A stretch of 64,000 bases of DNA from Ilex aquifolium (lineage: Eukaryota > Streptophyta > Magnoliopsida > Aquifoliales > Aquifoliaceae). Below are positions 1 through 43,240 of the stretch, piece after piece (the stretch's first letter is position 1; the number at the start of each line of letters is the position of its first letter). Both the position numbers and the translations under genes were made by a program. The notes below the pieces were generated by a model. The model did no database searches and was not told the DNA's origin. It saw only the letters and a program-made list of their open reading frames with translations. The DNA is taken from assembly GCA_951799425.1 (NCBI GenBank), contig OX637401.1, positions 18,980,501 to 19,044,500 of the forward strand, read 5' to 3'.

Positions 1-489
1 CGTCGATTCATTAAAAATTTTAGTGCATTGGCCCGACCTTTGACCAATTTATTATCTAAAGATGTTCCTTTCGAGTGGTCGGATAATTGTGAGACATCTT
101 TTACAAAACTCAAAAGTATGCTTGTCACACCTCCAATTATGCGACCACCCAAGTGGGATTTACCTTTTGAGCTTATGTGCGACGCGAGTGATTACGCGGC
201 CGGCGCAGTGCTCAATCAAAGAGAGGAAAATAGACCATATGTAATATACTATGCTAGTAAAACTCTTAATGAAGCTCAAATGAATTATACCACCACTAAA
301 AAGGAGTTACTAGCAGTAGTATTTGCATTAGATAAATTCCGGTCTTACATCATTGGTTCACCGATAGTTGTTTATACTGATCATTCTGCTTTGAAGTATT
401 TGTTGTCTAAGCAGGATGCCAAACCAAGGCTTATCAGGTGGATCCTCCTACTCCAAGAGTTCAATCTGACCATCAAAGACAAGAAATGA
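1..489 (+). pseudogene. Pol fragment: end of reverse transcriptase and RNase H (element A)
   Basis: The frame is open from base 1. It encodes the RT connection ([18 protein letters not shown]) followed by RNase H, with the catalytic-region string MCDASDY, then [17 protein letters not shown] and [11 protein letters not shown]. These are the standard RNase H motifs of plant Ty3/gypsy Pol. RNase H would remove template RNA during cDNA synthesis. An in-frame TGA at 487-489 separates it from the integrase part in the same frame (VENVVADHLSRL follows at once). Element B has a TGA at the identical place. The start lies outside the window. Confidence 0.9.
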
Positions 490-1914
490 GTGGAGAACGT
501 GGTGGCGGACCATTTATCTCGACTGGTCATGCAAGAGGGCGAGGAGCACATTCCTATCCCAGATTACTTCCCTGATGAACAATTACTTTCAATTCATTAT
601 GTGTGTCCTTGGTATGCTGACATATGTAATTATCTTGCAACAGGACAAATACCACCGCATTGGAGCCCAGAGGATCGAAGACGATTTATGGCAGATGTGA
701 AGTACTTTTACTTCGACAACCCGTACCTGTTCAAGTACTGTCCTGACCAAGTCATGAGGAGATGCGTACCTGAGAATGAACAACGGGATGTCCTGGCATT
801 TTTCCATTCGCAAGCATGCGGTGGACATTTCTCGGCGAAGAAAACTTTGGCCAAAATTCTTTAGTCAAGTTTTTATTGGCCCTCTCTTATTAAAGACGGT
901 GTTTCATATTGTAAGGCATGCGACAGATGCCAATGATTGGGTAGTGTGACCCGTAGAAATATGATGCCCCTTTCCCCCGTGCTTGTCATCGAAATATTTG
1001 ATTGTTGAGGCATCGATTTCATGGGTCCATTCCCCATGTCTTTTGGTTATCTGTACATTCTTCTGGCAGTGGACTACGTGTCCAAGTCGGTAGAGGCTAT
1101 CCCAACCAAGACTAATGACCACCGGGTCGTAGTCAAGTTCCTTAAAGAAAATATTTTTTCGAGGTTTGAGATGCCTCGTGCAATGATCAGTGATAGTGGA
1201 TCCCACTTCTGTAATAGGCCATTTGCATCATTAATGTTTAAATATGGCATTACACACAAAGTATCCACTGCATACCACCCACAAACCAATGGCCAAGCTG
1301 AATTAGCCAATAGGGAGATTAAAAATATCTTGGAAAAAACGGTTAACCCAAACAAGAAGGATTGGTCAGTCAGACTGACCGATGCCTTATGGGCGTACCG
1401 TACTGCCTATAAGACTGTTTTGGGCATGTCTCCCTACTAGCTGGTTTATGGAAAGGCTTGTCATTTGCCGGTTGAAATGGAACACAAGGTCTATTGGGCC
1501 ATTAAGACCTTGAATTTTGACTTGAGAATGGCCGGTGAGCAGAGAAAGTTGGAACTGAATGAATTGGAAGAAATCCGCCGAGATGCGTATGAGAGTTCAA
1601 AAATTTCAAAAGAACGGACCAAAATATTTCATGACAAATCCATTTTGAGGAAATCATTTGAGTCCGGGTAAAAAGTGCTTTTATACAATTCTCGTCTATC
1701 CATTTTCCAAGGAAAACTTCGATCCCGTTGGGATGGCCCCTATCTTGTCAAGTTGGCCTACCCCAACGGAGCTGTGAATGTCACAAACCCCGACAATGGC
1801 CAGACATTCAAGATCAATGGCCAAAGGCTTAAGCCATTTTTTGACGGTGTTGAAGGACAGATGGTGGAGGAGGATTTAATTGATCCGGTGTATCCGGATT
1901 TGGTGGAGGAGTAG
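490..1914 (+). pseudogene. Pol fragment: integrase (element A)
   Basis: This continues the Pol frame after the TGA. The N-terminal zinc-binding part (H near 828, then CKACDRC around 915-935) reads through a TAG near 862. The catalytic core starts near 1006, where the usual Trp codon before GIDFMGPFP is TGA. Core acidic residues can be placed at [15 protein letters not shown] and GQAELANRE, the D-D-E pattern. Further stops interrupt at 1438-1440 and 1669-1671. The C-terminal part has [12 protein letters not shown] and closes at TAG 1912-1914. Integrase would insert the cDNA into chromosomes. With at least four stops the copy cannot make the full protein. Confidence 0.88.
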
Positions 1915-2870
1915 CTAGTATTTATGTTTTTTTTTAATGTACAGTTGTTTTTATTTATTTATGTTATTTTTATGTCACTTACTTTCTTTGGTTGTATAGT
2001 ATTGTTTTTTTGAGTTTTAGATATTGGTGCTTTTATCGAAGCTAAATTGCAAGGTGTTTTCTAACCCTACTCATTTTTTTTACTGTCCTTCATTGAATAT
2101 CATACCTTGTTGTTTCATTTAGGACAATGCATGACTCAATTTGGGGGTGAGATGTACCATTTGCATGTTATACCAATGTATTCACGCCTGCCGACATTTA
2201 AAAAAAAAAAGTCAGAAGGATGCCTTTATTAGGCCTCCCACTTTTTCTTTTTTCTTCCCCAATCACCGGTGTTGGTCCCCCCCCCCCCCCCCCCCCTTCT
2301 TCTTCTTCTTTTCTTCTGCCTGCAGACACTCGCTTTCAATAAAAGGGGGGGCCTCCCACTTTTTCTTCTTCTTTTCTTCTGCCTGCCGACACTCGCTTTC
2401 AATACAAAAAAAAAAAGGGGGGGGGGGGGGCCAACCCAGCTCCTGTCGACACTTCTAAAAAAAAAAAATCAGAGGGATGCCTTTATTAGGCCTCTCACTT
2501 TTTTTTCTTCCCCCATCACCGGTATTCGTTCCCCCCCCCCCCCATGCTTTTCTTCTTCCCTTCTTCTTCTTCTTCGTCGTTCTCTCTGTTCTCTATAAAA
2601 ACAACCCAACCCCTGCAAATCCATGACTATATACGCCGATGACCCAGTCATTTGTTTAATAATTTGTCTTATATGTTTGTATTTGTACCTGGGTGCTCTT
2701 TTTATTCTCGCACTTAGGATGAGGGGTTTTCAGCACTCAGATCTCCCTCGAGTTGAGTAATTGTTGTGTTTTGTTTGTAGGGTTCGGCAGCTGAACAAAT
2801 CTCTACCCTATAACCTCATTTCCAAACTTCATAAACTAGTAAATTCGAAACATTGGGGACAATGTTCAGT
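1915..2870 (+). repeat. Post-pol noncoding DNA with imperfect tandem duplication and homopolymer tracts
   Basis: There is no convincing gene here. A first polypurine-like string (TTTGGGGGTGAG) lies near 2140. Between about 2205 and 2570 a block starting GGATGCCTTTATTAGGCCTC occurs twice about 260 bp apart, and a block with GACACTCGCTTTCAATA occurs twice within it. These blocks are joined by long C runs (about 2278-2296, 2531-2543), a G run (about 2418-2430) and poly-pyrimidine. Such tracts are typical of slippage, and base counts within them may be unreliable. Confidence 0.7.
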
Positions 2871-2889
2871 TTAGATTGGGGGGTGTGGA
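2871..2889 (+). promoter_or_regulatory. Internal polypurine tract upstream of the accessory ORF (element A)
   Basis: The string TTAGATTGGGGGGTGTGGA follows ACAATGTTCAG. Element B has a matching tract and matching flanks at the same place relative to its accessory ORF. Polypurine tracts prime plus-strand DNA synthesis. An internal tract before the env-like region is, as I recall, known from Athila-type elements. Priming here is inferred. Confidence 0.55.
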
Positions 2890-3040
2890 TCTACTTTCTC
2901 TTTCTCTAATTTCGTATTTGTAATTCCAGTTTTAGATAAATAAAAAAAAAAGGTTCTGTTTATTTTTATTCTGAATTGCGTATTTTTATAGTATTTGTGC
3001 CTGTATTTCATGATCACATCGGATGCAGCTTCAATCGTCT

Positions 3041-3070
3041 TTGTAACTGGCAGACATTAAAGAACCAGAT
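3041..3070 (+). promoter_or_regulatory. Conserved 30-bp block upstream of accessory ORF (element A)
   Basis: By hand alignment this block is identical at 26 of 30 positions to the block at 7480-7451 (-) in element B, and all four differences are A/G transitions. It contains a CAG preceded by a branch-point-like TAACTG, so a 3' splice site for a subgenomic mRNA is one possible role. The ORF start follows 24 bp later. Confidence 0.4.
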
Positions 3071-3094
3071 AGGGTGTCTCTAATTTTAGCAAGC

Positions 3095-3499
3095 ATGGAT
3101 AATAGACTTTTTTGGTTCAGTTTAGGCGTTTTACGCACCTTTCCATCCGATGTGTATGCTGTGATAATGAAAAATGCAAGAGTTGTGAGACAAATTGAAA
3201 TCCGGGAAGCACAAGCAAACCCATTGTGTGGCAGAAGTAGTTATGCTAAACGCCGTCGTGCCAAACGACTGGGTGCTTGTAAAAAATGTGGCAGGTGTTT
3301 TCACATGAAAAAATACAATCAGTGTTCTGAACCAATTTTGGGTCGTGCAACCGATCGATTAAACTGGATAGTGTATGGGCAGAGCAAGGATTTTCCTAAC
3401 ACGCCATCCTATTCCAGCCCGGGACTTACACGTTATGTGTTACAAGAAGTTGGAAGGGTCACTAATACTGATATAGACACAAGTGATGACTCGGATTAG
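3095..3499 (+). CDS. Carlavirus NABP-like zinc-finger accessory protein of element A (134 aa)
   Basis: This is an intact ORF in a retrotransposon whose pol is broken. I chose ATG 3095 (MDNRLFW) over the in-frame GTG at 3074 because element B's homologue starts at the same residue (MDEKLFW). The N-terminal half is probably helical. The middle has GRSSYAKRRRAKRLG followed by a C-x2-C-x4-H-x6-C cluster (residues about 61-76). The C-terminal third has a conserved YGQSKDFPNTPSYS string and an acidic tail (DTSDDSD). A basic block placed right against a Cys cluster is the signature of the small cysteine-rich nucleic-acid-binding proteins at the 3' end of carlavirus genomes. That resemblance is my recognition, not a search. 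RNA or DNA binding is likely; silencing suppression or packaging is speculation. About 63 of 110 positions match B's copy. It occupies the env-like slot of Athila elements. Confidence 0.65.
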   Translation: MDNRLFWFSLGVLRTFPSDVYAVIMKNARVVRQIEIREAQANPLCGRSSYAKRRRAKRLGACKKCGRCFHMKKYNQCSEPILGRATDRLNWIVYGQSKDFPNTPSYSSPGLTRYVLQEVGRVTNTDIDTSDDSD

Positions 3500-5361
3500 A
3501 TTTTGACTACTAAAGACAAAGCTGTAGAAAAACGTGTTTTGGGATGAAGGTTAAGGGTCCGAACTTTTTTTTGTAAAAATTTTTTGTACAAAGTCTTGTT
3601 GTTGAAATAAAAATGTGGGCCGAGTAAGGAAAGTCCTAAAATGCCAACCTATAGCGTGGGTAGGGACTGATCCTGAGACGCCATAAATTTCCAAGTTCAA
3701 TTTGTGCATTTTATCTTCTTTTAATTTTCATAGATAAATATGTATGTAAATAATTTTGATTTTGTTTGATTTCGAATTCCAGTATAAAAAAAAAACAAAA
3801 AAAAAATTAAAAATTAAAAATTAAAAATTAAAAATTTGTGGAAAATATCTAATATTGAACCATATCCCCCTATTGAAAGTGTATGGGCCTAGTGATATTT
3901 TGATCTTCATTTGAACTGTGAATACATGAGCATGTTATAGAAGTTTATCCTATTGTTAAGAGTATCACATACCTGTTTGCTTTTGAACTCAACCATAAGT
4001 GCACCATGAACTTGTAATTTTGGCAATTTACGGATTGAGTTCACATTTAGTGCTTGACATGAATAGTGGAGATGAGTAAAAACTCATGTGAGCTTTTAGT
4101 GTCAATCCTTGTTGGAGGGAGCTTACATTTACTCAAGGAACAATTTTTCAAATTTCAAATTTGTTCAATAATCTCATTATGCTTGTTTTGGTTAGAGTGC
4201 ATTTGGGTAGTTGATTGACTTGGTCTTGAAACGAAAAATACTCCCCCATGCTTATTTAGAAATGGTATTAGGCCATCTTTGAAATGTTTTGAGCATTAGC
4301 CTTTTTCTTGTGAAATTTTATCCCTAGTGCCGTGATTGAGCCTTAAATTATAAATTCGTTTCCATGCCACACATTTGACCAAACCAGTGCAAAATGATAA
4401 AATCTACCTCACCTTGGTTGTTCCTAGTGCTGAGTATGATAGATCATAAAAGAGAAGGAAGTATGGTGTGAAAATTCAAACAATAGGGATGAATGATGTT
4501 GGAACTCAAAAGAGTTGAAAAAAAAAAAAAAACAAAGAGTGTGGTGATGGTGTTAACCTAGAAATCCCATAAAAGAAAAATTTTGTTTGAAATAAAGGTC
4601 ATTCATTCGGAACAAACCTCTTTGCTATCCTATGTCCTTCATTTCATTTACCTAGATATCACCCCAAGGCCTCATTACAACCCTTGAAAGTCCTAAATGA
4701 TCTTGAGAAGCATGGGAGATGCATACTTTAAAAAAAAAAAAAAAGTTGATTTTGCTATCTAGTGCCCTAACATTCCTTTCATGAGATTATGCCAAAGTTG
4801 TTTCACTTTTTATGCATGTGCTTCATTTCTGGATTATAGGTGAGCATACTTCGGTTTGTGCATAAAATTCTATCTCACATATACACATGGAGACCATGCC
4901 AATATATTCATAGTGTGATTCATTGTTGAGAGAAACCCTTGGTGAGTTTTGCATCAAAGCTTAATTTGGATAGCTAGGTGAATGTGGATTCTGTTGAGTA
5001 AATACTTAAATTACATCTTCATTTCACACACACACGAGTTTGGAAAGTAAATGTGTAGGTGAATACTCTAGAATAGCATTTAAGACTATGATGTCTTTCA
5101 TGTATGATTAGTTCAGGTGTATTGAACAAAGCTATTATTGACATCCCATTGCTAGTTAGAATACGGGCATATGTTGTAATTATTGGATATTAGGAAAAGA
5201 AGTTTGTAGATACTTTCATTGGAAACCTTCACGAGACAAAACTCGTCCACTAAGAATCACCTAGGGGTTTAACGGCTTGTTGCATATGCTAAATGCAATC
5301 GTGTTATCTACGAAAGTGATTTTGTTATGTTGTTATTTATTACTAGGGACTAGTAATGTTT
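3500..5361 (+). other. Long 3' noncoding region of element A
   Basis: There is no ORF of note in this AT-rich stretch. It contains a degenerate copy of the accessory ORF's 3' end (3613-3668) and several A-runs. The long spacer between the accessory ORF and the 3' LTR is in keeping with Athila elements. Confidence 0.6.
3613..3668 (+). repeat. Degenerate duplicate of the accessory ORF C-terminal coding segment
   Basis: The stretch containing GTGGGCCGAGTAAGGA and ATGCCAACCTAT aligns with 3373-3428, which encodes the conserved YGQSKDFPNTPSYS part of the accessory protein, at an offset of about 240 bp. The duplicate has stop codons in frame. Confidence 0.55.
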
Positions 5362-5374
5362 AGGTTGGGGGGTG
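5362..5374 (+). promoter_or_regulatory. Terminal polypurine tract of element A
   Basis: AGGTTGGGGGGTG lies directly against TGATTAACCCTAATT, the LTR start. The same LTR end is seen, in reverse complement, at 19000-19014 in element B. This is the expected plus-strand primer. Confidence 0.75.
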
Positions 5375-5648
5375 TGATTAACCCTAATTAATGCAAAATG
5401 TAATTAAGTTTATATGTCAATTGTGTAATTAAATAAAGTTAAACTAGTCAAAATAAATCTAATTAGGGTTAATGTGTGAATTAAGGATAATGCATTGAAT
5501 GTTGTTCTTTTCAGGGTTTTATGCGTCAAAACTACAAACTACTGGGGAGCCAATTATCAAAGCATGGGGAGCCAATTATCAAAGCATAGGGTGTCAATTA
5601 TTAAAGCTCAAAACAAAGGGAGATCAAAGTGTAAATCAAGATCTTCTT

Positions 5649-5755
5649 GATATTTGTAAATAAAGATCTTTTAGGATATTTGTAAATAAAGATCTTTTAG
5701 GATATTTGTAAATAAAGATCTTTTAGGATATTTGTAATTTGGATGCCTATAAATA
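5649..5755 (+). promoter_or_regulatory. 26-bp tandem repeat array and TATA box in LTR A
   Basis: GATATTTGTAAATAAAGATC recurs at 5649, 5675 and 5701, with a partial fourth unit at 5727, a period of exactly 26 bp. The array ends about 10 bp before the TATA box at 5748-5755. This looks like an enhancer array in U3. Confidence 0.65.
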
Positions 5756-5882
5756 CCCCCATTGGGGGCTTGTAATCATAATCTTTCTCTTGTATCATTT
5801 TTCTTGTAAAGAGCATTTCTTCCTAGTGGAAAACACTCAAAAAGTCTTGATTGCTTTCTTGTATCATCTACAAAGTAGTTAT

Positions 5883-6160
5883 TGTTATCTTTTAATTATT
5901 GCTTTCTTTTATGTTATTATTATCTCTTGGTTGTGGATTAAACACCAAGAAGTTATTGTTTTCTTTTATGTTATTATTATCTCTTGGTTGTGGATTAAAC
6001 ACTAAGTAGTTATTGTTTTCTTTTATGTATTATCATCTCTTGGTTGTGGATTAAACACCAAATAGTTATTGCTTTCTTTTATATTATTGCTTTCTTTTAT
6101 TGTATTATCATCTCTTGGTTGTGGATTAAACACCAAGTAATTATTGCTTTCTTTTAATTT
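5883..6160 (+). repeat. Tandem repeat of about 57-80 bp in LTR A downstream of TATA
   Basis: The string ATCTCTTGGTTGTGGATTAA recurs four times with TTATTGCTTTCTTTTAT-type spacers. It lies in the transcribed R/U5 part of the LTR. Nothing here looks coding. Confidence 0.7.
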
Positions 6161-6703
6161 AAGTATTGTTTTCTTTTACTTCCATTGTTGGAGCTTCCTT
6201 CTTCCCTTAGAGGAGTGAAACTCTTCCACTTTTCTAGAGCTTTACCAAAGCCGTGAAGGGTGGAACGTGATTCACTCATTCTTTGTCGAAGATCGGCTTT
6301 CTTGTTGTAATATGTCGAAGTTATATTGATGCATTTCTTTTATGCTTAGCTTAATCTTTATTTCTTCATAATGTCTTTCCATTTCATTGTTGTTTCCCTT
6401 TTAAGCATGAGTAGCTAAGCTTTTTAGTTGGCTAGTCCAAAAAGAGACCTCCATTTGAAAATGCTATTTCAACTTTTTTCTCTCCTTCCCTCAGAGTACG
6501 GTGGTTCGGTTTGACTGGGTAGAGAGTGGATGAGATAGTGAGTTTTTTATATTCCGTAGACTTGTCACGGTTTATGCTTAGATCCTCAATCAATCTCGTC
6601 CCTAGCTTCCCACGAATCAATCGTTCACCTATGCTCTATTAGAGGAATGATTTGAGTTGAATTGGTATTTCCATTGGAGTGACCCCTAGGACTAGCCAAC
6701 ACT

Positions 6704-7049
6704 TATTTCCCATTCAGATTTCACCACAAGACAAACCACAAACCCAACTTCAAACAACAAAAGATTTTTCACTTTCTTTTGCACCAAAATCACCTTCATG
6801 ATGATACAACTCCTTCCCTGAAGAGACGACCTTGGAATACCACCAAGTAAAACACGACCTGCAAAAGTTTTCTTGCGCTTGGGAAGCACTTTTGTTCATT
6901 CACATCCCACATTTTTAACATTCTATTTTCCCATTGTCTTGCCCTTTCTTTTGACATCATCCCTACGGGAGAGGGACACTTCCTTTCATCCATACATCAT
7001 ATATACATCATTGAGGGAGATGTTAAGAGGTTAGAAACAACAAAGGTTT
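6704..7049 (-). other. Tail of element B downstream of the accessory ORF
   Basis: Short minus-strand frames exist here (to 6993) but they overlap each other, and I see no counterpart in element A. I call no gene. The stretch ends at the junction with LTR A. Confidence 0.5.
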
Positions 7050-7388
7050 TTACCAAGCAATAGGGGTAGAATAGGATGGCGTCTTAGGGTAATCTTTACT
7101 CTGCCCATACCTAATCCACCATTGACGATCTAACGGTCGACCTGAAATTGGTTCCGCACACTTATTATATTGTCTCAAATGCTCTAAACGACCACATCTT
7201 ACACAACCACCGAGACAATTTGATCGTCGGCGTTTAGCAAATGTACTTTTTCCACACAGGAGTCTTGCTTGACTTTCAAAAATTTCTAAATTTCTAACAC
7301 TTCTAGCTTTTTGCATGATCAATGCATGTATATCTTTTGGAAGATGACACAGTAAAATTAAACTTAACCAAAATAGTTTCTCATCCAT
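7050..7388 (-). CDS. Carlavirus NABP-like zinc-finger accessory protein of element B (112 aa)
   Basis: This open ORF starts at ATG 7388 (MDEKLFW). It shares the whole layout of the copy in element A: a hydrophobic N-terminal stretch, then CGKSTFAKRRRSN, then a C-x2-C-x4-H-x6-C cluster (CVRC...H...NKC), CAEPI, and the C-terminal YGQSKDYPKTPSYS string. It lacks A's acidic tail and stops 22 residues earlier. Substitutions between the copies are mostly conservative (R/K, I/L/V, F/Y), and the Cys and His ligands and the RRR block are kept in both. The neighbouring integrase is disrupted, so the ORF's integrity is notable, though at this length chance survival cannot be excluded. A nucleic-acid-binding role is inferred. 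Confidence 0.65.
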   Translation of the reverse strand: MDEKLFWLSLILLCHLPKDIHALIMQKARSVRNLEIFESQARLLCGKSTFAKRRRSNCLGGCVRCGRLEHLRQYNKCAEPISGRPLDRQWWIRYGQSKDYPKTPSYSTPIAW

Positions 7389-7450: not shown

Positions 7451-7480
7451 ATCCGGTTCTTTAACGTCTGTCAGTCACAA
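7451..7480 (-). promoter_or_regulatory. Conserved 30-bp block upstream of accessory ORF (element B)
   Basis: It matches 3041-3070 of element A at 26 of 30 positions. It lies 62 bp before ATG 7388. It contains GACTGACAG, which could be a branch point and 3' splice site. Confidence 0.4.
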
Positions 7481-7556: not shown

Positions 7557-7799
7557 TAAATTAAACATTGTTCGCAATGTATACCCAATATCTGGCTTTA
7601 CTCAGGAGATCTGGGTTTGATTTTTGGCATTGGACTCTAATCTGTCAAATAAATAACAAACAATTAGTATTTATATTTTATATTCAAACAACAATATGTA
7701 TTTTTCAGAGCACACAATATGGATCAACAATATGGATCAACAATATGTATTTTAATCCTTTGACCGTTTACTCTAAAAACATTTTCAGTTAATAGATTC

Positions 7800-9155
7800 T
7801 CAATTTCAATTGTCCCATAGTCAAAAACTTACTTGACAATATAAGGACCTGTCTATCTAGATCTTAATTTTCCAAGAAATAACCGAAGTTTTGCATTATA
7901 TTGCAGAACTTTTTGAAAAGGTTTAAAAAATTTTCGCATGCTATTTTCATCATGAAAAATTATAATAGAACTTTTTTAAAAGGTTCAAAAGTTTTTCGCA
8001 TGATATTTTTATCATGAAAAAGTTTTGTTCTAGATTTAGCAATTTTTGCACTTCATAAGCTTTGTTTCTTAATTCTTCTAATTCATTAATTTGCAGTTTA
8101 CGAGCTACTCCAGCTTTATTCATATCAAAATTCATTATTTTGATTACCTAGTATGCTCGATATTCTAATTCTATAGGCAAGTGACATGGTTTACTAAAAA
8201 TTAACCGATAAAGGAGACATTCCTAAAATAGTTTTATATGCAGTACGGTAAGCCCAAAACGCATCAGTCAATCCCAAAGACCAATCCTTATGATCTGGAT
8301 TTACTGTTTTTTCTAAAATGTATTTTTTCTCCCTATTAGCTAATTCGGCTTGTCCACTTGTCTGTACATAATACGGAGTGGATATTTTATGAGAAATCGA
8401 GTATTTTTTCATAAAATTTTTAAAAAATTTATTACAAAAATGTAATCCACCATCACTGATAATGGTTCGAGAAATTCCAAATCTGAATAAAATATTTCCT
8501 TTTAAAAACTTGACCACTGTTCTGTGATCATTATTTCTACATGGAATCGCTTCTACCCATTTAGAAATATAGTCGACTGCAACCAAAATGTACAGATATC
8601 CAAAGGATGAGGGAAATGGTCCCATAAAATCAATGCCCCAACAATCGAAATTTTAACAATTAAAATAGGGTTTAAAGGCATCATATTTCTTTTTGAAATA
8701 TTCTCCATTCTTTGACATTTGTCACAATTTAAACAAAAGATATGAACGTCTTTAAAAATAGTTGGCCAATAAAATTCACACTGTAAAATTTTAGCAGCGG
8801 TTTTCTGTGAAGCCAAATGGCCTCTACAAGCTTCAGAGTGACAAAATTGAATTACCTGACCAATTTCATGATTAGGTACACAACGTCTTATTATCTGATC
8901 TTTACAGTATTTAAACAAATAAGGATCTTCACAGAAAAAATTGCGTACCTCACTTAAAAACTTATTTCTATCAGTCCAGGTATAATTAGAAGGGATAGTA
9001 CCAGTAGCTAAATAATTGGTTATATCTGCATACCATGGTACTTCTGTTATTGTAAAAAGTTATTCATCTGGAAAGGTTTCTCTAATCGGAATTGGTTATT
9101 CTTTTATATCATAATTTAGTCTTGACAAGTGATCTGCTACCACATTTTCAACTCA
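7800..9155 (-). pseudogene. Pol fragment: integrase (element B)
   Basis: This begins after an in-frame TGA (9155-9153, minus), with VENVVADHLSRL next. The zinc-binding part is at about 8918-8700 (HSEACRGH and CLNCDKCQ). The catalytic core is at 8625-8194 with [22 protein letters not shown] and GQAELANRE, the D-D-E residues in place. The C-terminal part (8135-7950, then decayed to about 7800) ends in several frameshifts. The Trp codon before GIDFMGPFP is intact here, unlike in A. Confidence 0.85.
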
Positions 9156-9556
9156 TTTCTTATCTTTTAGGATAAGATCAAATTCTTAAAGTAGCAAAAT
9201 CCAACGTAGGAAACGTGGCTTAGTATCTTTCTTAGCAAGTAAATATTTTAAAGCTGCATGATCAGTAAATACTACAATTGATGATTCAACCAGATATGAA
9301 CGAAATTTATCTAATGCAAACACAACAGTAAGTAATTCTTTCTCTGTAGTTGAATAATTCATTTGTGCATCATTTAGAGTTTTGCTTGCATAGTAAATAA
9401 CATAAGGCTTCTTATCTTTTCTTTGACCTAATACAGCTCCTAATGTGTAATCACTCGCATCACACATTAATTCAAAAGGTAAAGATCAGTCAGGAGGTTG
9501 CATAATAGGTGCAGAAATAAGCATGTGTTTTTTTAATTTATCGAATGCTAATTGAC
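9156..9556 (-). pseudogene. Pol fragment: RNase H (element B)
   Basis: The core frame at 9467-9186 has [42 protein letters not shown] and [11 protein letters not shown]. The stretch 9556-9468 is the RT connection up to the insertion of a solo LTR. Domain order and sequence parallel element A at 1-489. The shared TGA after DKK lies at 9155-9153. Confidence 0.88.
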
Positions 9557-10103
9557 TGTAAGACCCCGTATTAAAATTAAATACGTAGAATATGATCTTA
9601 AGACTTCTCCTAAGAAGAATAAAATTATGGTAGAAACTTAGAATAATTGTTAAAATATTGATTATGAAGTTTAAGTTTTCAGCGTATTTGACTTTCGGTG
9701 TAATTTGAGTTTTAGAGATGTTTAAATTTGAGAAGGGGGACGAAATAATTTTATAAATATTTATAGGTCAAAATAGGTTTCTATTGAATCCGGAAGATCG
9801 AAAAACATTGGAAGAGGTTATATGAGTTGTATTAAAAGTTCAGAAGTATTCTAGAGTTAAAACCTATTTTGGAGAGGATTTGGGTAGAAAAGTTTTTGAT
9901 ACTATCTTAGTATTTTAGACATAAATTTTTACTCCGATTTCAGATTGAGCTGAAATTTTTAGAGTAGAAACTAAAATTCAAGGGCTACAAAATGTTATTT
10001 CACGAAAATTTCGTAAATCGGCCTCTAACTAGGTCAAAACTGAGCTGGAAGTAAGGGGCAGACTTCTACCCGCGCCCATACGGGAATTCTCTATTTTTCA
10101 GCC

Positions 10104-10111
10104 TATAAATA
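10104..10111 (+). promoter_or_regulatory. TATA box of the solo LTR
   Basis: TATAAATA in GCCTATAAATACCC, about 550 bp into the LTR. This is typical of a plant LTR promoter. Confidence 0.6.
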
Positions 10112-10338
10112 CCCTAGGGCCGTGATCTAAAGAGTCTTTACCTATTTTTCAACCCCAAGAAACCTATAAAAGTTTGAGGAGAAAAAAAGGAGGAAGAACG
10201 GGATAAATCTTGAAGGATTAACGTGGGGTAATCACAACGAAACACATTATGATCAAGATTCAAGAATCAAGGTAGGGGTTTCTTCCTAAACTTGTTCATT
10301 GAGATTAGGGTTTATGTATATGTATGTTTTGATTCTAA

Positions 10339-10341
<3 letters not shown>

Positions 10342-10393
<52 letters not shown>
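10342..10393. repeat. (TA)n microsatellite
   Basis: About 26 uninterrupted AT units inside the solo LTR. The homologous solo LTR near 51320-51350 lacks the expansion, so it grew after insertion or in this subfamily. Confidence 0.95.
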
Positions 10394-10396
<3 letters not shown>

Positions 10397-11668
10397 ATGA
10401 AACCATTGTTTCTTGATTTTCTTGCAAATCATATCATGTCTTGAATAAAGTTATCGTTTCATAGCCATAAAGATTCTCGTTTTTGTTATCAAAACCCTAG
10501 TTTTCAAGAAATATTAGTTTTACCCTTGAGATTCTATTATTCTTGATTTAAAGGCTCTAGTGTTTTGTTGGAACAATAAAATTATATTTCTTGATGATCT
10601 CTTGTATATTTTCTTGAGTTGTTATGTTGGAAAAATACTTGTGCAATTATGGTTCTTGGTTACCTGTGGAATTATGGTTCTTGGTTTACCTGTGATTTGG
10701 TGAACTGGTTTGGTATTGTATCTCTTGTGTAGATGTTTTGATAAACATGGGTGACCGTTGACCGGGTATCATATAGTGGGTAGATGTGTTTCTTACTCCG
10801 AGTGGATTTGAAAGTTCCCTACCACTCGTAGTGGGGTTGGTGCCATGTGAGGACCAAACCACTATTCGCTTACGGGTATCGAGGCTGGGGGCTAATATAC
10901 TATTCCTGGGTTGGATTTGTTATTGCCGATGCGTTGGTATACGCCCTTCCTAAAGTTGTGTATCCTTGCGAGGATTGGGTGTGTGTGTGGGCCAGGATAT
11001 TCTCAATGTGTGTATTCATGCGAAGTCTTACTATATACCTGAGATACAGTGTCGATAATGGTTTGTTGTTTGAAAGTTGGTTTTACTTCTTCATTTAATT
11101 TATTTCTACTACGTAACTTGAGATCTGATGAACTGTCACTGTTTTATTTCAAAAGTTATATATTATATTTTGTAAAATGAGACCGACCCTATTTTGATAT
11201 ATTTTCAAAACCTTGTTTAAGTTTGGGAGGATTTTCCAACAGAGCTTAGTGCTCACCCCCTACAAACAACATTCTTTTCAGATTTTGGTTCAGAGAAAGA
11301 GCTCGGAGTGGACGAGCAGGTACTTTGGGAAGTTCAAGTGGATGGGCATGTGGTTCCGGAAGGGGATGTTTAGAATTGTTCTCTTTATGTCCTAGACTAG
11401 GAGATTTATTTTGAGATAATGATCATGTTAATATTTTCCTTATTCTGCTGCGAGATAATAGTTTGGTATATTCTTTTGGGCGTAATTGCCATAGTTTGAC
11501 ATATTCTTTTGGATGTAATGGCCATGGTTTGACATATTTATTTTAGATGTTGCAGATATTATGGATGATGAATGTAATTTTCTTTATTTATGGATCTTAT
11601 TAGTTGCTCTCATGATGTGAATGGTTTTAAATAGTAATGTCGTCCAAGGGGGATTTTGGGGCGTTACA

Positions 11669-12904
11669 TTGACATGCATCATTCCAGTCAAATAATATAT
11701 CATGAAACAAAAGATTACATATAGGTCTAGATATTGAACTAAAGTTTTTAACAAATCTTCTATAAAATTCTGCATGACCAAGAAAAGATCGAACATCTTT
11801 TACTGTTTTCGGTGAAGGAATATTAGCTATTAAGTCAATTTTGGATTTATCAACTTCAATTTCTTTTTCAGAAACTATGTGACCTAAAATAATACCTTGT
11901 GTAACCATGAAATGACATTTTTTCCAATTTAAAACAAGGTTTGTTTCTTCACATCGAATAAGCACTTTTTCAAGATTTTCTAAACATAAATGAAATGAAT
12001 TACCATATACTCAAAAATCGTCCATAAATTTTTTTAGATATTGTTCTATAATATCACTAAATATGCTTAGCATGCAACGCTCGAAAGTAGCTGGGGCATT
12101 ACATAATCCAAAAGGCGTCTTTTTATAAGCAAAGGTACCAAAATGACATGTAAATGTAGTTTTTTCTTAATCATCTATTGCAATTTCAATTTGATTATAA
12201 CCAGAATAGCCATCTAAAAAACAATAATATGCATGACCAGCTATTCTTTCTAAAACTTGATCTAGAAAAGGCAATGAAAAATAATCTTTTCTAATGAGGA
12301 AATTTAGTTTTCGATAGTCAATACACACACGCCACCCTGTGACTGTACGCATTGGAACTAATTCATTCTCTTGATTTTTTATTACCGTAACACCAGACTT
12401 TTTAGGAACTACATGTATAGGACTAACCCATTTATTATCAGATATAGCGTAGATAATATTAGCATCTAATAGCTTAAGTACTTCAGCACGGACTAATTCT
12501 TTCAAATGTGGATTCAATATTCTTTGCATTTGACGACATGGTTTAGCATCTTCTTCTAAATAGATACAATGGGTACATAGAAATGGACTTATACCTTTGA
12601 TATCTGCTACTGTCCATCCAATAACACTTTGATGATCTGTCAAAAAAAATTTCAGTTCTTTTTCTTGAATTTCAGATAATTTTGATGATATTATCACTAG
12701 ATAGATTTCATTCTTCCCCAAAAAGACATATTTTAGGTTAGATGGAAGAGGTTTTAATTCTGGTTTAAAAACTTTGACATTAGATTCTTCAGATTTAGGT
12801 GGATCATTTGCTGATATAACTTCAGATTCAGTATCAGGTATAGATTCTAATGGATATGACTCTTTTTTCATAAAAATATTTTCAAATAAACTCTGAGTTA
12901 ACAA
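11669..12904 (-). pseudogene. Pol fragment: reverse transcriptase (element B)
   Basis: The N-terminal part (12904-12167) has WVSPIHVVPKKSG, TVTGWRVCIDYRKLN and motif A FLDGYSGYNQ with its catalytic Asp. A frame change near 12167 leads into the palm. The motif C equivalent is FMDDF (MDD at 12025-12017), and it is followed directly by TGA (12013-12011), where the family has a sense codon. The thumb and connection (11965-11627) read CHFMVTQGIILGHIVS and RSFLGHAEFYRRFVKNFS. The wording is that of Athila-lineage RT. The gene is cut at 11668 by the solo LTR. Confidence 0.88.
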
Positions 12905-13102
12905 CTAAACACAATTTACTTCATGCACTTCATCTTCTTCTCTGGGTTGTTTTGTAAAGTTAAAAACATTTAATTCCAAGGTCATGTTTCCAAATGAAAG
13001 TTTCATGACTCTATTCCTATAATTAATCAATGCATTTGATGTAGCTAGGAATGGTCGACCCAAAATAACAGGTATGTACAGTTCTTGATCCGAAATGTGT
13101 AC
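12905..13102 (-). pseudogene. Pol fragment: end of protease (element B)
   Basis: The frame carries VILGRPFLATSNALI, the conserved C-terminal protease string of Athila-type Pol. The 5' half of the protease lies on the other side of a solo LTR, at 15014 and beyond. A stop follows VHEVNCV before the RT frame. Confidence 0.85.
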
Positions 13103-14377
13103 ACCCAAGTGCAGGCGGTCAAGCTGTAGTAATAATCCGGTTTGAGTCCGGAGTCGAATCCACAGGGAACTTTTGTTGATATTTCTAAGGCAAGTAGTGG
13201 TACAGACCTATTGATTGTAACCCTTGAGATTTGCTGTGAGATATGAGTTTTCCTGGACAGAATATAAGATTCTTTCCAAGAGGATTTTCTTAACAAGATA
13301 GGAGATAAGTGCTGATTAAAAAGAGTCATTCTTTAGTGCAATGATCTGGACATGTAGTTAGTTATCCGGTTTGTCATAATTGTGCTTGATAACTCAATTA
13401 ACTCCCGTGTCAACAGCAAGTTACTCGGAAGATAAAGATGTATTGTGAGAATTAAGAACATGATTCTGATGTCTTTCTAGAAGTTTACAAGAATTGCATG
13501 TGCCGAGACTTAACCCGTCTACAAACAAGCAAGTGTTTCTACAAGATATCCAATCATGATATTAATATTACATTCTTTAAATGAAGTACAATAAGGGGGA
13601 TGATTGAAGGGTAGTCATGAGGATCTAGCCGGGGTACTTGCCTTGAACTGATGAGTCTTTCTATGCAAGAGTCATCTGTGTCATAGAAAGAGCTCACAGT
13701 TATACAAAGTACCTTAGCTTTGCTAGATGCAATCAATCATCCAATAACAAGAAGAAATAAACGTTAAGCATAAAAACAATGCACAAATATGATTCCCGGA
13801 TAACTTATACATGCCCTTCTCCTCTTACTAAAGAGTGAATGAGAAACTACTCACTCTTCATGGCTTGGGTAAAGGTAGAAAAGTGAGTGATGCTCATCCC
13901 TCCAAGTAGAGAACTTAAAAGATAAAGTAACAACAAACACGGAGCCAATCTTTAACAAAGAATGGGTGAATCACGTTCCACCCTTCACGGCTTTGGTAAA
14001 GCTCTAGAAAAGTGGAAGAGTTTCACTCTTCTAAGAAAGAAAAAAGCTCAAGCAATGGAAGTGAAATGCATGAACAATAAAAGTAGAAGAGAACTAGTCA
14101 CATTTGGAGGGTGGCTTCCTCAACCAAGAATTAGAGGGTTGCTTCCTCAACCAAAAGATGAACTATCTCTCTTCTATGCATGTAAAATGAAAGCATAAGC
14201 TTAAGCATAAGCATAAAACTAATTTTATAACAAGCAAGAGATGTTGGACTAGAGCCAAACTAATCTCTAAGATAAAAACTTCATACAAGGAAAACAAGCT
14301 AAATCTACAATGAGAGTGGGAGTCTAAGCCTCCATCAACTTTCCTACTTGGCTCCCTTAGGTCTCCAACAAGAGGAG

Positions 14378-14385
14378 TATTTATA
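14378..14385 (-). promoter_or_regulatory. TATA box of the solo LTR
   Basis: TATAAATA in GCCTATAAATACTCC on the minus strand, about 80 bp downstream of the nearest CGTTCGAACG palindrome. Confidence 0.6.
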
Positions 14386-14466
14386 GGCAAGAGGAGGTGA
14401 AGGAATAGTGTTTGCCGCCCAAGTCCAAGTGAAAAGCCAACCACTCTGCTGCCAGTCTGTGGAGAA

Positions 14467-14828
14467 CGTTCGAACGTGAGTTGGCGTTCGAACGTTGTTT
14501 CTGTTTTTGCACTAAGGGCGTTCGAACGTTAACTGCCGTTCGAACGTTTCTTCTGTTTTTGCACTATGGGCATTCGAGCGCCAGATTTGCGCTGACCCTT
14601 TCACTCGAGTGGTCTTTTGGTCTTCTGTGAAGTTCAGTTCCAACTCTATATAGTAGTCTGGTCATCAATCAACTCAAGTGCACGTTCGAACGTGAGTTGG
14701 CGTTCGAACGTGACACTCAAGTGCTTCAGAGCTTCAATCTTCTTTCCTAACTGCAACACGCCTTCTCTTAGCAGTTGAGTCTGCTACAGTATAATGTGGA
14801 CGTTCGAACGTGAGTTGGAGTTCGAACG
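14467..14828. promoter_or_regulatory. Array of CGTTCGAACG palindromes in the solo LTR U3
   Basis: Perfect 10-bp palindromes lie at 14467, 14485, 14519, 14537, 14683, 14701 and 14801, with an imperfect one at 14819. They come in pairs 18 bp apart, with the spacer GTGAGTTGG in three pairs. All lie upstream of the TATA box. Paired, phased palindromes suggest protein-binding sites. Confidence 0.6.
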
Positions 14829-15013
14829 TTCTGGCTGTGCTCCAAGTTCCTCCAATTTTGGGCTCTAATGTGATGGTGTTGCATCCAAGTGTGGTACTTG
14901 TTGTTCTTGGGTCCTTGTTCAGTTTAGGGCCTGAAATGACATTACTTAAAGTCCATCAAAGTACAATTAGTCTTAAAATGTCACAATAATATGTCAATTT
15001 TAAGTACTAATCA

Positions 15014-15741
15014 TGTACGCAGATGCATGAAAAATTGGTTGCGAGTCTAAAACGATAAAATCTGCTGGGAAATAGAATTGATAAACTTGGATAATAACAT
15101 CTTCCACAATTCCTCGTGGAGTTTTTACGGATCGGTCTGCTAATTGAAATGTAACATTGGTAGGTTTTAACTCACTCAATCCTAATTGTGTATACACCGA
15201 ATATGACATTAAATTACAACTGACTCCCAGATCTAGCAGAGCTTGTTCAATTCAAAAATTTGCAATGATACATGAGACTATAAGACTATCTGGATCTTTG
15301 TATTTAAGTAGAGTGTTTTGTTGTATTATAGTACTAACTTGTTCAGTTAGAAATGTCTTCTTTGGTACATTTGTTCTTCTTTTTACTGTGCAAAGATCTT
15401 TCAAAAACTTGGCGTAGGCTGGAACTCGTTTGATGGCATCCAACAAAGGAATGCTAATCTTTACCTGTTTAAATAGCTCAAGAATGTCAGATTGATCTTT
15501 TTCAGATGAGGACTTCTTAACCCCTTTAAGGAAAAGGTAAATGAATAGGACACGTATGATCTCTCTCATTTTGTATTTCTTGTTGTTTTTCGGCTGAAGG
15601 TTCAGGTTCAAGTGGTTCATTTACAAGAATTGACTTACGTATTTTTTTCAAAATTTTAGGTTTAATGGTCTTATCAATAACTTTATCACTTCTCAGTGTT
15701 GTGATTGCTTGTACTTGACTTGGCAAAGCTTCAGAAGACAC
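15014..15741 (-). pseudogene. gag-protease linker and start of protease (element B)
   Basis: Around 15480-15370 the reading ELFKQVKISIPLLDAIKR and AYAKFLKDLCTVKRR is typical of Athila polyproteins ahead of the protease. The protease active site reads ALLDLGVS (Asp codon at 15233-15231), followed by SYSVYTQLGL. Athila proteases generally use D-L-G rather than D-T-G. The frame runs to FHASAY and is then cut by the solo LTR. A stop separates the linker and active-site frames. Confidence 0.8.
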
Positions 15742-17243: not shown

Positions 17244-17261
17244 TCCCCGGCAATGGCGCCA
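17244..17261 (-). other. Primer binding site for tRNA-Asp (element B)
   Basis: On the minus strand it reads TGGCGCCATTGCCGGGGA. I recognise this as the primer site complementary to the 3' end of tRNA-Asp used by Athila elements, with one apparent mismatch. It lies 6 bp inside the LTR. Confidence 0.8.
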
Positions 17262-36519: not shown

Positions 36520-36990
36520 CTAAAAACGTCGCAAAATGAGACTACACGCTTTTTGTTTTTGGCGGGAGAAATGACGGGAATTGACAAATTAAATAAAAAC
36601 AAATTAATTAAGTTTTTAGCGACCTTTTTGAAAAACGTCACAAATAAATTTTTTACTTAAATGAAAAATTAAAAAAAATAACAATTTAAATTAATTTTTG
36701 GCGACGTTTTTAAAAAACGTCGCAAATAAATTTTTTACTTAAAATGAAAAAATTTTTAAAAAATAATTTAATTAATTTTTCGCGACGTTTTTAAAAAACG
36801 TCGCCAATAACTCTTTACATAAAATAAAAAATTAACAAAAGTATTAACTTAGGTAGTTTTTTGCGACTTTTTCAAAAAACGTCGCAAATAAATTTTTACA
36901 TAAAATAAAAAATTAACAAAAATAATAACTTTGGTAATTTTTAGCGACGTTTCTAAAAATCGTCGCCAATAACTTTTTACATACAATAAA
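36520..36990. repeat. Left subterminal palindrome array of the CACTA-like element
   Basis: GCGACGTTTTTAAAAAACGTC-type hairpins recur at about 36617, 36700, 36780, 36862 and 36945, roughly every 80 bp, separated by AAATAAAAAATTAACAAAA-like spacers. Confidence 0.8.
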
Positions 36991-36999
36991 AAATTAACA

Positions 37000-38480
37000 A
37001 AAATATTAACTTTGATAAACAATTACATTTTAATTTGGTGCTGATTTGATAAATTACATGTTAATTTGATGAAATTGAATGTCAATTTGTTAAATCTGAA
37101 TGTTAGTTTGATAATTTGAATGTTAATTTGATGAAATTGAGTGCTAATTGAATGAAATTGAAAGTTCATTTGATTAGTTTAATGTTAACTAGTTGAATCT
37201 GAATGTTAATTTAGTGTTAATTCGATTAATTGAATGTTAATTTTTTATTTAATTTGATAAATTAAATTTTAATTGAATGAAGTTACATGTTAATTTGGTG
37301 TTGATTTGATAAATTACATGTTAATTTGATGAATTGGGTGTTAGTTGAATGAAATTGAAAGTGTATAATTTAAATGTTTACTATCTGCGACGTTTTTTGA
37401 ATTTTGTCGCAAATTTCTTTTTTTGGCAATTTCATTTGCAACGTTTTTTGAAATTGAGTGTTAATTTGGTATTAATTCGATTAATTGATGAATTGAGTGT
37501 TAATTGAATGACATTGAAAGTGTATAATTTAAATGTTTACTATCTGCGACGTTTTTTGAATTTTGTCGCAAATTTTCTTTTTTGGCAATTTCATTTGCAA
37601 CGTTTTTTGAAATTGAGTGTTAATTTGATATTAATTCGATTAATTTGATGAATTGAGTGTTAATTGAATGAAATTGAAAGTTTATTTGATTAGTTTAATG
37701 TTAACTAGTTGAATCTGAATGTTAATTTAGTGTTAATTTGATTAATTAAATGTTAATTTTGTTTTAATTTGATAAATTAAATTTTAATTGAATGAAGTTA
37801 CATGTTAATTTGGTGTTGATTTGATAAATTACATGTTAATTTGATGAAATTGAAAGCCAATTGGTTAAATATAAATATTAATTTGATGAATTGGGTGTTA
37901 ATTGAATGAAAATTGAAAGTTTATTTGATTAATTTAATGTTAACTAGTTGAATTTGAATGTTAATTTAGTGAATTAAATGCTTATTAGAAAAAAGTGAAT
38001 GTTAATTAGAAGAAATTGAGTGTTAATTTGGTGTTAATTTGATTAATTGAATATTAATTTGGTTTTAATTTGATAAATTAAATTTTAATTGAATGAAATT
38101 ACATGTTAATTTGGTGTTGATTTGATAAATTACATGTTAATTTGATGAAATTGAATGTCAATTTGTTAAATCTGAATGTTATTTTGATAATTTGAATATT
38201 AATTTGATGAATTGAGTGTTAATTGAATGAAATTGAAAGTTTATTTGATTAGTTTAATGTTAACTAGTTGAATCTGAAAGTTAATTTAGTGTTAATTCGA
38301 TTAATTAAATGTTAATTTTGTTTTAATTTGATAAATTAAATTTTAATTGAATGAAGTTACATGTTAATTTGGTGTTGATTTGATAAATTACATGTTAATT
38401 TGATGAAATTGAATGCCAATTGGTTAAATCTGAATGCTAATTTGATGAATTGGGTATTAATTGAATGAAATTGAAAGTGT
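37000..38480. repeat. AT-rich minisatellite inside the CACTA-like element
   Basis: Short phrases such as TGAATGTTAATTTGATGAA and GTTAATTGAATGAAATTGAA are shuffled throughout. The longer block ACATGTTAATTTGGTGTTGA recurs near 37280, 37798, 38098 and 38356. A unit with ACTATCTGCGACG recurs near 37385, 37548 and 38498. It is not coding. Confidence 0.85.
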
Positions 38481-38792
38481 ATAATTTAAATGTTTACTAT
38501 CTGCGACGCTTTTTGAATGTTGTCGCAAATTTCCTTTTTTGGCAATTTCATTTGCGACGTTTTTGGAAAACGTCGCAAAAAGGTGATTCCCTCCCAATCT
38601 ATTTTTGGCCCGAAAGAATGCGGGAGCTGAATAAAATTATTATTTAGTGACGTTTTATATTAGTCGCAGAATTCAGTTTTTTGTAATTTTAAATTAGAAT
38701 TAAAATATTAATTGCGACATTTTAAATTTCGTCGCGAAATATATTTTTTAAAAGAGAAATGACATCGTTTTTGGGCGAAAGAAAATTCATTT

Positions 38793-42530: not shown

Positions 42531-42639
42531 TTTTGTTAGAATTTTTTTATAATACCATTTTTAATAAAGGTATTATTGGTGTACAGGTGAAAAATTTTAT
42601 TAGAATACCATTTTTTATAAAGGGTCATTTTTAAAAAAA

Positions 42640-43240
42640 ATGAACTTTTTCGCGACGAAATTAAAATCGTCGCAAATTTATTTATTCAATTATTTTTTTG
42701 CATTTTTTATTTAAAAAAATTATTTGCGACGAGTTTTTTTACGTCGCTAAAAAATCATTAAATTATTATTGTTTTACATTTTTTATTTATGTACAAATCT
42801 ATTTGCGACGTTTTTTTTTCGTCGCTAAAACTTAATTTAATTATTATTTTTTTACATTTTTATTTTTGTAAAAAATTATTCGCGACGATTTTTTTTTACG
42901 TCGCAAAAAATTAATTAAATTATTATGTTTGAAATTTTAGTTTTAAAAAAATTATTCACGACGATTTTTTTTATGTCGCAAAAAATTAATTTAATTATTA
43001 TTTTTTATTTTGTTACGCTAGTGGAATATATTTTAGCTACGTTTTTTTTTTTACTTTTCGCGACGTTTTTTTTTCGTCGCTAAAAATTTTGTTTGCAATG
43101 AAATTAGATTTGCGTCGCAAAATACTTTCTGCGACGAGGCTATTGCGACGAACACGCGACGAAAAAAAAACGTCGGAAAAAATAATTTGCGACGATTTTT
43201 TTGAATTTAGCGACGAAAAAAATCGTCGCAAAAAACGATT
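42640..43240. repeat. Right subterminal palindrome array of the CACTA-like element
   Basis: GCGACG(A/T)TTTTTT...CGTCGC hairpins recur near 42650, 42727, 42806, 42883, 42956 and 43060, every 75-80 bp except a wider final gap, then as a dense cluster up to the terminus. Confidence 0.8.

What the first reader, a model, noticed from the sequence alone, without database searches (positions are those of the whole stretch)
3095..7388. Carlavirus-like nucleic-acid-binding protein gene carried by an Athila-type retrotransposon family
Seen: two diverged elements (A and B) with broken pol frames both keep an open small ORF at the same place after pol (3095-3499 + and 7388-7050 -). A hand alignment gives about 63 identical residues of 110. 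The GRS/GKS..AKRRR block, the C-x2-C-x4-H-x6-C cluster, CSEPI/CAEPI and YGQSKD(F/Y)P.TPSYS are shared, and most changes are conservative. Established: carlaviruses have a 3'-terminal small protein with an Arg-rich block next to a Cys cluster (Viral_NABP family), some members of which affect silencing or transcription. Inference: the retroelement family exchanged this gene with a carla-like virus, in either direction, and uses it in place of the env-like gene. I know of no such description.
Basis: partly seen in the sequence, partly recalled or inferred. Interest (0 to 1): 0.92.

Follow-up and report, generated by a model that had tools for sequence, protein, structure and literature searches.

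The report
Virus-type RNA-binding gene in plant retrotransposons
Retrotransposons in this plant genome carry, on a cassette after their enzyme gene, a small gene related to an RNA-binding protein of plant RNA viruses; selection keeps it intact, and it likely helps the element resist host silencing.

Summary
Both ORFs pass the Pfam cut-offs of Viral_NABP and Carla_C4. A profile of the family reaches a Grapevine virus A protein at E 1.1e-8 among 5.8 billion sequences. In the window's own genome all 150 scored hits to ORF A (of 4076 candidates) are 78-100% identical. One copy shows LTR, PBS, gag, pol, then TWO NABP ORFs, PPT and LTR.

The gene sits on a cassette of about 1.6 kb (window about 2180-3820). 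Of 17 sampled integrase relatives, 14 lack it, and 13 of those join the cassette's flanks directly. Families A and Y have integrase pS 0.83 but NABP pS 0.25, so the cassette moved between lineages. Between families pN/pS is 0.33-0.48 in frame and 0.84-1.87 in wrong frames. A conserved 20-bp block before the ORF resembles a splice acceptor.

Corrections: ORF B lacks the C-terminal tail; a carlavirus rather than vitivirus link is not shown; the direction of exchange is open. Function (nuclear nucleic-acid binding, anti-silencing) is inferred. Ten paper searches showed no description.

The parts
3095..3499 (+). NABP-like ORF of element A, 134 aa, complete
   Evidence: 96% identical copies elsewhere in the genome
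7050..7388 (-). NABP-like ORF of element B, 112 aa as read; family tail missing after about 7062
2180..3820 (+). cassette holding the NABP ORF and its leader; absent from sister families, whose flanks join here
3047..3066 (+). 20-bp block CTGGCAGACATTAAAGAACC 48 nt before the ATG, splice-acceptor-like (inferred)
7455..7474 (-). same 20-bp block before ORF B
2876..2887 (+). PPT-like TTGGGGGGTGTG inside the cassette, upstream of the ORF
28..489 (+). element A, RNase H-region piece of pol (by alignment to the L031 pol; not scanned on its own)
1021..1440 (+). element A, integrase core piece (PF00665)
5365..5376 (+). PPT TTGGGGGG running into the start of the 3' LTR of A (TGTGATTAACC from 5373)
8194..8918 (-). 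element B, integrase pieces of pol in two overlapping frames
12167..12904 (-). element B, start of the reverse-transcriptase region of pol; RVT_1 match below the cut-off (13.8 of 29.6 bits)
17244..17261 (-). element B, primer binding site, 1 mismatch to the recalled Athila 18-mer

Best explanation
Athila-type retrotransposons in this plant genome carry, between pol and the 3' LTR, one or two copies of a gene homologous to the nucleic-acid-binding proteins of plant flexiviruses, on a cassette that is absent from sister families, was exchanged between deeply diverged families and is held by purifying selection; the protein is likely made from a spliced mRNA, likely enters the nucleus, and is predicted to bind element or small RNA and blunt host silencing. 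Shown: homology, position, duplication, cassette presence and absence, exchange between families, selection, conserved leader block. Inferred: splicing (the block CTGGCAG|ACGTTAAAGAACC reads as a 3' splice site, with possible GT donors just after the PBS), nuclear entry (basic block GRSxxAKRRRAKR), nucleic-acid binding (basic block plus C-x2-C-x4-H-x6-C), and anti-silencing (from published work on the viral relatives).
For: Family: P0001 37.4 bits against PF05515 (cut-off 23) and 31.0 against PF01623 (20.9); P0002 24.0 and 25.0; the two ORFs of the L031 copy 41.0 and 47.6 against PF05515. The PF05515 match of P0001 spans residues 9-101, not only the basic block. Viral sequence: P0029 [Grapevine virus A] E 1.1e-8 with profile A2; 35 of 92 identical to P0001, z 19.5 against 2000 shuffles. 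Context: L031/L032 show PBS 1356, gag (PF03732), RT, RNase H, integrase, NABP1 7724-8155, NABP2 9362-9766, PPT and LTR; 23 of 150 listed integrases have a listed NABP 1.8-4.9 kb downstream on the same strand, none on the opposite strand within 6 kb. Sample from the NABP side: 14 of 14 loci hold it by selection, 10 are two-gene elements and 4 B-type. Cassette. Exchange: A-Y integrase pS 0.83 against NABP pS 0.25; pol 69% against cassette 81% nt. Selection. Leader block: 44 of 44 rows (43 distinct copies; two rows with too little upstream left out; up to 3 substitutions), 4 of 4 B-type, 3 of 3 loci with and 0 of 14 without the gene. Gag of L031 has its own zinc knuckle, so the NABP is not simply a missing nucleocapsid.
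Against: No expression, splicing, localisation or binding data. Y1-type genes have CTGGAAG instead of CTGGCAG, and L009 has no AG there, so not every copy could splice at this place. B-type pairs show weaker constraint: L077 against L079 and against B give in-frame pN/pS 0.66 and 0.68 with wrong-frame values from 0.59 to 1.29. 14 of 17 sampled sister elements lack the gene, so it is not needed for retrotransposition. The AlphaFold model is poor (mean pLDDT 64, pTM 0.33) and supports no fold claim. The donor-like GTs in the L031 and B leaders do not match each other.
Confidence: 0.55

Rival explanations
1. Same gene and cassette, but the protein works on the element's own life cycle: it activates transcription or escorts the genomic RNA or cDNA (chaperone, nuclear import), and does not touch host silencing.
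For: The basic and Cys-His blocks fit any nucleic-acid binder; the gene is optional and duplicated, as accessory genes are. A carlavirus relative is cited as a zinc-finger protein acting on plant genes (reference titles seen in passages of PMC12172455).
Against: Gag in L031 already has a CCHC knuckle; sister families multiply without the gene. Neither point excludes an auxiliary role.
Confidence: 0.3
2. The gene is a plant host gene captured by the elements, and independently by viruses; the virus and retroelement copies are not exchanged with each other.
For: NABP-like proteins are annotated in Populus, Acer, Xanthoceras and Orobanche (context not seen). Weak resemblance of the basic-Cys block to ribosomal proteins eL37 and eL43 (E 0.06-1).
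Against: The plant proteins come in clusters of up to 566 member sequences (P0039), as expected of repeats rather than single genes. The eL37 and eL43 matches are not significant.
Confidence: 0.15
3. The ORF is a relic: a viral fragment that entered an ancestor once, is carried along, and does nothing.
For: Most copies in the genome are old and non-functional in pol, as A and B are; many relatives do without the gene.
Against: pN/pS 0.33-0.48 between families with 0.84-1.87 in wrong frames, exchange and duplication of the cassette, and conservation of the leader block across NABP dS above 1.
Confidence: 0.03

Closest known systems
Viral_NABP / Carla_C4 proteins of plant RNA viruses (carlavirus cysteine-rich protein; Grapevine virus A RNA-binding protein)
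   Same: Passes both Pfam cut-offs; basic block directly before a Cys-His cluster, the arrangement described for carlavirus CRP (passage of PMC8742542); acidic end like that of P0029.
   Different: Encoded by a DNA-integrating LTR retrotransposon in very many copies, not by an RNA virus; a short N-terminal helical part precedes the block, absent in P0029.
Additional ORFs (aORF/eORF) of plant LTR retrotransposons, env-like ORF of Athila
   Same: Sense ORF between pol and 3' LTR, patchy between families; passages of PMC7264820 and PMC6317226.
   Different: Those passages report no similarity of antisense aORFs to viruses and name plant mobile domain, Transposase_28 and Athila ORF-1 as the prominent domains; the survey in PMC6317226 counted only eORFs of at least 250 codons, so a 134-codon gene would be missed.
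AlkB domain acquired by orchid Ty3/Gypsy elements
   Same: A domain also known from Betaflexiviridae found as an extra domain in plant Gypsy elements (passages of PMC9289625).
   Different: Another, enzymatic domain; a single host genus in that paper's title and passages.

Membership tests
Viral_NABP (PF05515) | score above Pfam's curated cut-off of 23 bits | tested here: met
   P0001 37.4, P0002 24.0; L031 ORFs 41.0 and 47.6; 150 of 150 scored places in the genome of 3095 candidates
Carla_C4 (PF01623) | score above Pfam's curated cut-off of 20.9 bits | tested here: met
   P0001 31.0, P0002 25.0; L031 ORFs 26.8 and 24.4
carlavirus-type cysteine-rich protein | Arg-rich block next to a zinc-finger-like cluster | tested here: met
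   44 of 45 rows each for the C-x2-C-x4-H-x6-C pattern and the basic pattern (L001 and window A are the same copy; L010, stopped at codon 7, left out); feature taken from a passage of PMC8742542
carlavirus-type cysteine-rich protein | 3'-terminal gene of a positive-strand RNA virus | tested here: not met
   lies in an LTR retrotransposon
carlavirus-type cysteine-rich protein | closer to carlavirus than to vitivirus sequences | not tested
   no carlavirus sequence retrieved; four viral-contig scans gave none
carlavirus-type cysteine-rich protein | suppression of RNA silencing | not testable with these tools
   published for viral members (passages of PMC12172455)
Athila (Ty3/gypsy, OTA) | gag-RT-RNase H-integrase order without chromodomain and without second (archaeal) RNase H | tested here: met
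   Pfam scan of L031 ORFs lists none at E 0.01; criterion from passages of PMC6317226
Athila (Ty3/gypsy, OTA) | Athila primer binding site | tested here: met
   L031 1356 exact, window 17244-17261 with 1 mismatch; the 18-mer is recalled
Athila (Ty3/gypsy, OTA) | place in a tree with reference Athila elements | not tested
   no reference set at hand; the name rests on the features above and on recall
Athila (Ty3/gypsy, OTA) | env-like ORF after pol (some members) | tested here: not met
   L031/L032: apart from the NABPs only a 196-aa frame overlapping the pol end and a 104-aa frame on the + strand; no membrane prediction was run

The most novel reading that the evidence does not exclude
The NABP gene is a shuttle between two worlds: a retrotransposon anti-silencing gene on a swappable cassette, from whose family the silencing-suppressing NABPs of plant flexiviruses were drawn (or the reverse), so that plant genomes hold a large hidden reservoir of virus-type counter-defence genes under selection.
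Probability: 0.3. Interest if true: 0.95.

Novelty: new variant of a known kind. Interest (0 to 1): 0.82.

Why it matters
Extra ORFs of plant LTR retrotransposons mostly lack recognisable relatives, so their function is open (passages of PMC7264820 and PMC6317226). Here one has a clear relative among virus proteins with published silencing-suppressor members. That makes the question 'do plant retrotransposons carry their own counter-defence genes?' directly testable. The cassette gives natural pairs of sister families with and without the gene in one genome. If exchange with viruses is confirmed, retroelements and RNA viruses share an accessory-gene pool.

Tried and rejected
Tried without result: four scans of viral contigs for NABP or for the A integrase found no relatives. 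The structure model was too poor for fold search, so none was run. Solved structures gave only non-significant ribosomal eL37/eL43 matches. The protein tree holds one viral row on a very long branch and says nothing about direction. The 182-aa plant group is not found as such in G000: its best hits there are Y1-type NABPs. The search for the group of P0021 in G000 did not complete.

Rejected: chance ORF; simple low-complexity basic match (match spans residues 9-101; shuffles); neutral relic; 'missing nucleocapsid' (Gag knuckle). I first thought the window group especially close to Grapevine virus A, but P0021 and P0039 score almost as high against it (113, 108, 102), so this was dropped.

Errors of mine: one search used loci on the minus strand without turning them, so its all-pairs dN/dS is void (its A-B value used turned sequence); redone. 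One search kept only 8 rows through a length filter. In one search the labels Y1a and Y1b mix close copies, so that row is not used. The 'polC' control lay outside the fetched stretches and tests nothing. L010 was dropped (stop at codon 7) and L001 left out as a repeat of window A.
Full report
What is there. ORF A (3095-3499 +, 134 aa) and ORF B (7388-7050 -, 112 aa) are real and homologous: 63 of 109 residues, E 2e-49. Both pass the curated cut-offs of Viral_NABP (37.4 and 24.0 bits, cut-off 23) and Carla_C4 (31.0 and 25.0, cut-off 20.9). A profile of 13 relatives reaches a Grapevine virus A RNA-binding protein at E 1.1e-8 in 5.8 billion sequences; ORF A and that protein share 35 of 92 residues and score 19.5 standard deviations above 2000 shuffles.

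Other plants. A wider profile found 648 proteins at E 0.01 or better among 7993 scored candidates. The listed best 120 include annotated proteins of Populus, Acer, Xanthoceras and Orobanche, mostly 182 aa long, and one named viral protein. Where these plant genes lie was not seen.

The genome. The window is C11:18980501-19044500 of an 800-Mb assembly. ORF A gives 150 scored matches of 4076 candidates, all 78-100% identical, 123 of 150 without internal stop by my count. PF05515 itself gives 150 of 150 scored places over the cut-off, of 3095 candidates. These lists are capped and favour the best copies.

Anatomy. A copy on C5 (L031, L032) shows the PBS at 1356, a gag ORF 1481-3556 (PF03732), a pol ORF 3557-7081 with RT, RNase H and integrase, split from gag by a stop in the same frame, then two NABP ORFs at 7724-8155 and 9362-9766, the PPT and the LTR. 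The two ORF modules are 72% alike over 825 columns. The array repeats every 12.16-12.21 kb. Among 7 fetched loci of this type, 5 hold both ORFs whole and 2 are cut by the stretch start. A sample of 14 places (every 11th of the PF05515 list) gave 10 two-gene elements and 4 B-type single-gene elements; pol was seen upstream in 9 of 14, and in at least one of the other 5 the stretch is too short to reach it.

Element A. Its pol ends at 1914, the NABP follows at 3095, the PPT is at 5365-5372 and the 3' LTR starts at 5373. Element B runs on the minus strand from a PBS at 17244-17261. Its ORF stops matching the family at about 7062, near where the 3' LTR of A should end; A may have inserted into B, which needs the left flank outside the window to show.

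The cassette. From the 150 integrases most like that of A (of 20252 candidates), 23 have a listed NABP 1.8-4.9 kb downstream on the same strand; none has one on the opposite strand within 6 kb. Every ninth of the 150 was then sampled: 3 of 17 have the NABP in the 3.6 kb fetched, 14 do not, by tblastn and by profile. In 13 of those 14 the sequence matching window 1837-2179 is followed at once by the sequence matching window from about 3811-3935 on; the other (L052) does not show the right side. So the gene and about 1 kb before it form a unit of roughly 1.6 kb that sister families lack. Both the joined site and the cassette carry a GGGGACAATG...TTGGGGGGTG motif, which may be where it was gained or lost (inference).

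Exchange between families. In pol, Y and B stand apart from A and its sisters with 100/100 support. A and Y are 69% alike in the 3' part of pol but 81% in the cassette. Integrase pS between A and Y is 0.83; NABP pS between A and the second gene of Y is 0.25. Path lengths are about 0.81 in pol and 0.28 in the cassette, although the exact place of the Y genes inside the cassette tree is not supported (22.7/52). The cassette thus moved between these lineages after their pol genes parted.

Selection. Between families pN/pS is 0.33-0.48 in frame and 0.84-1.87 in the two wrong frames; Jukes-Cantor dN/dS is 0.21-0.37. Within families it is 0.43-0.50, with wrong frames 0.68-1.22. B-type pairs are mixed: most 0.35-0.49, but two pairs 0.66 and 0.68.

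Leader block. CTGGCAGACGTTAAAGAACC (up to 3 substitutions) lies 46-86 nt before the ATG in 44 of 44 rows tested (43 distinct copies; two rows lacked upstream sequence), and 75-107 nt before it in 4 of 4 full B-type copies. It is in 3 of 3 sampled loci with the gene and 0 of 14 without. CTGGCAG|AC preceded by a pyrimidine-rich stretch reads as a 3' splice site. Y1 genes have CTGGAAG and L009 CTGGCTG, so the reading does not fit all copies equally. Possible donors after the PBS are not conserved between L031 and B.

How it likely works. Inferred: a spliced mRNA gives a small protein with a helical N-terminus, a basic nuclear-entry block, a Cys-His cluster and an acidic end. It enters the nucleus, binds nucleic acid and counters host silencing of the element, as viral relatives are reported to do (passages of PMC12172455). 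The gene is optional, duplicable and swappable, as expected of an accessory function. The structure model is too poor to help (pLDDT 64).

Novelty. All ten paper searches were seen as listings; one search listed 20 of 3707 papers. Passages were read in PMC7264820, PMC11728184, PMC9289625, PMC6317226, PMC12172455 and PMC8742542. None described a NABP gene in a retrotransposon. The large survey in PMC6317226 only counted extra ORFs of at least 250 codons, which would explain a miss. Supplementary files and most subscription papers were not available.

Noticed in passing
window 9556-11668 and 50522-52664: Two copies of one repeat, about 76-79% alike; the first interrupts the pol of element B.
   Followed up: no
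window about 13080-15040: A second insertion in element B, with repeated CGTTCGAACG-bearing units at 14467-14852 and a 125-bp stretch shared at 90% with the LTR region of A at 6174-6298.
   Followed up: partly
G000 C5:20385361/20397527/20409691; C13:22162720/22174934; C8:28147124/28159328: Two-NABP elements in tandem with a period of 12.16-12.21 kb; on C5 the LTR stretches compared are 99.1% identical.
   Followed up: partly
proteins P0014, P0033-P0142: A large plant group of NABP-like proteins, mostly 182 aa, named in Populus, Acer, Xanthoceras and Orobanche, with clusters of up to 566 members.
   Followed up: partly
ORF A residues about 30-97: Faint resemblance to ribosomal proteins eL37 and eL43 (E 0.06-1); a possible deep origin of the NABP block, not significant.
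   Followed up: partly
L043 2399-3262: An ORF near an NABP copy matches Transposase_32 (PF20167) at 38.8 bits, below its cut-off of 45.
   Followed up: no
window 36584-38569 and 42591-43051: Blocks of tandem repeats, partly inverted relative to each other.
   Followed up: no
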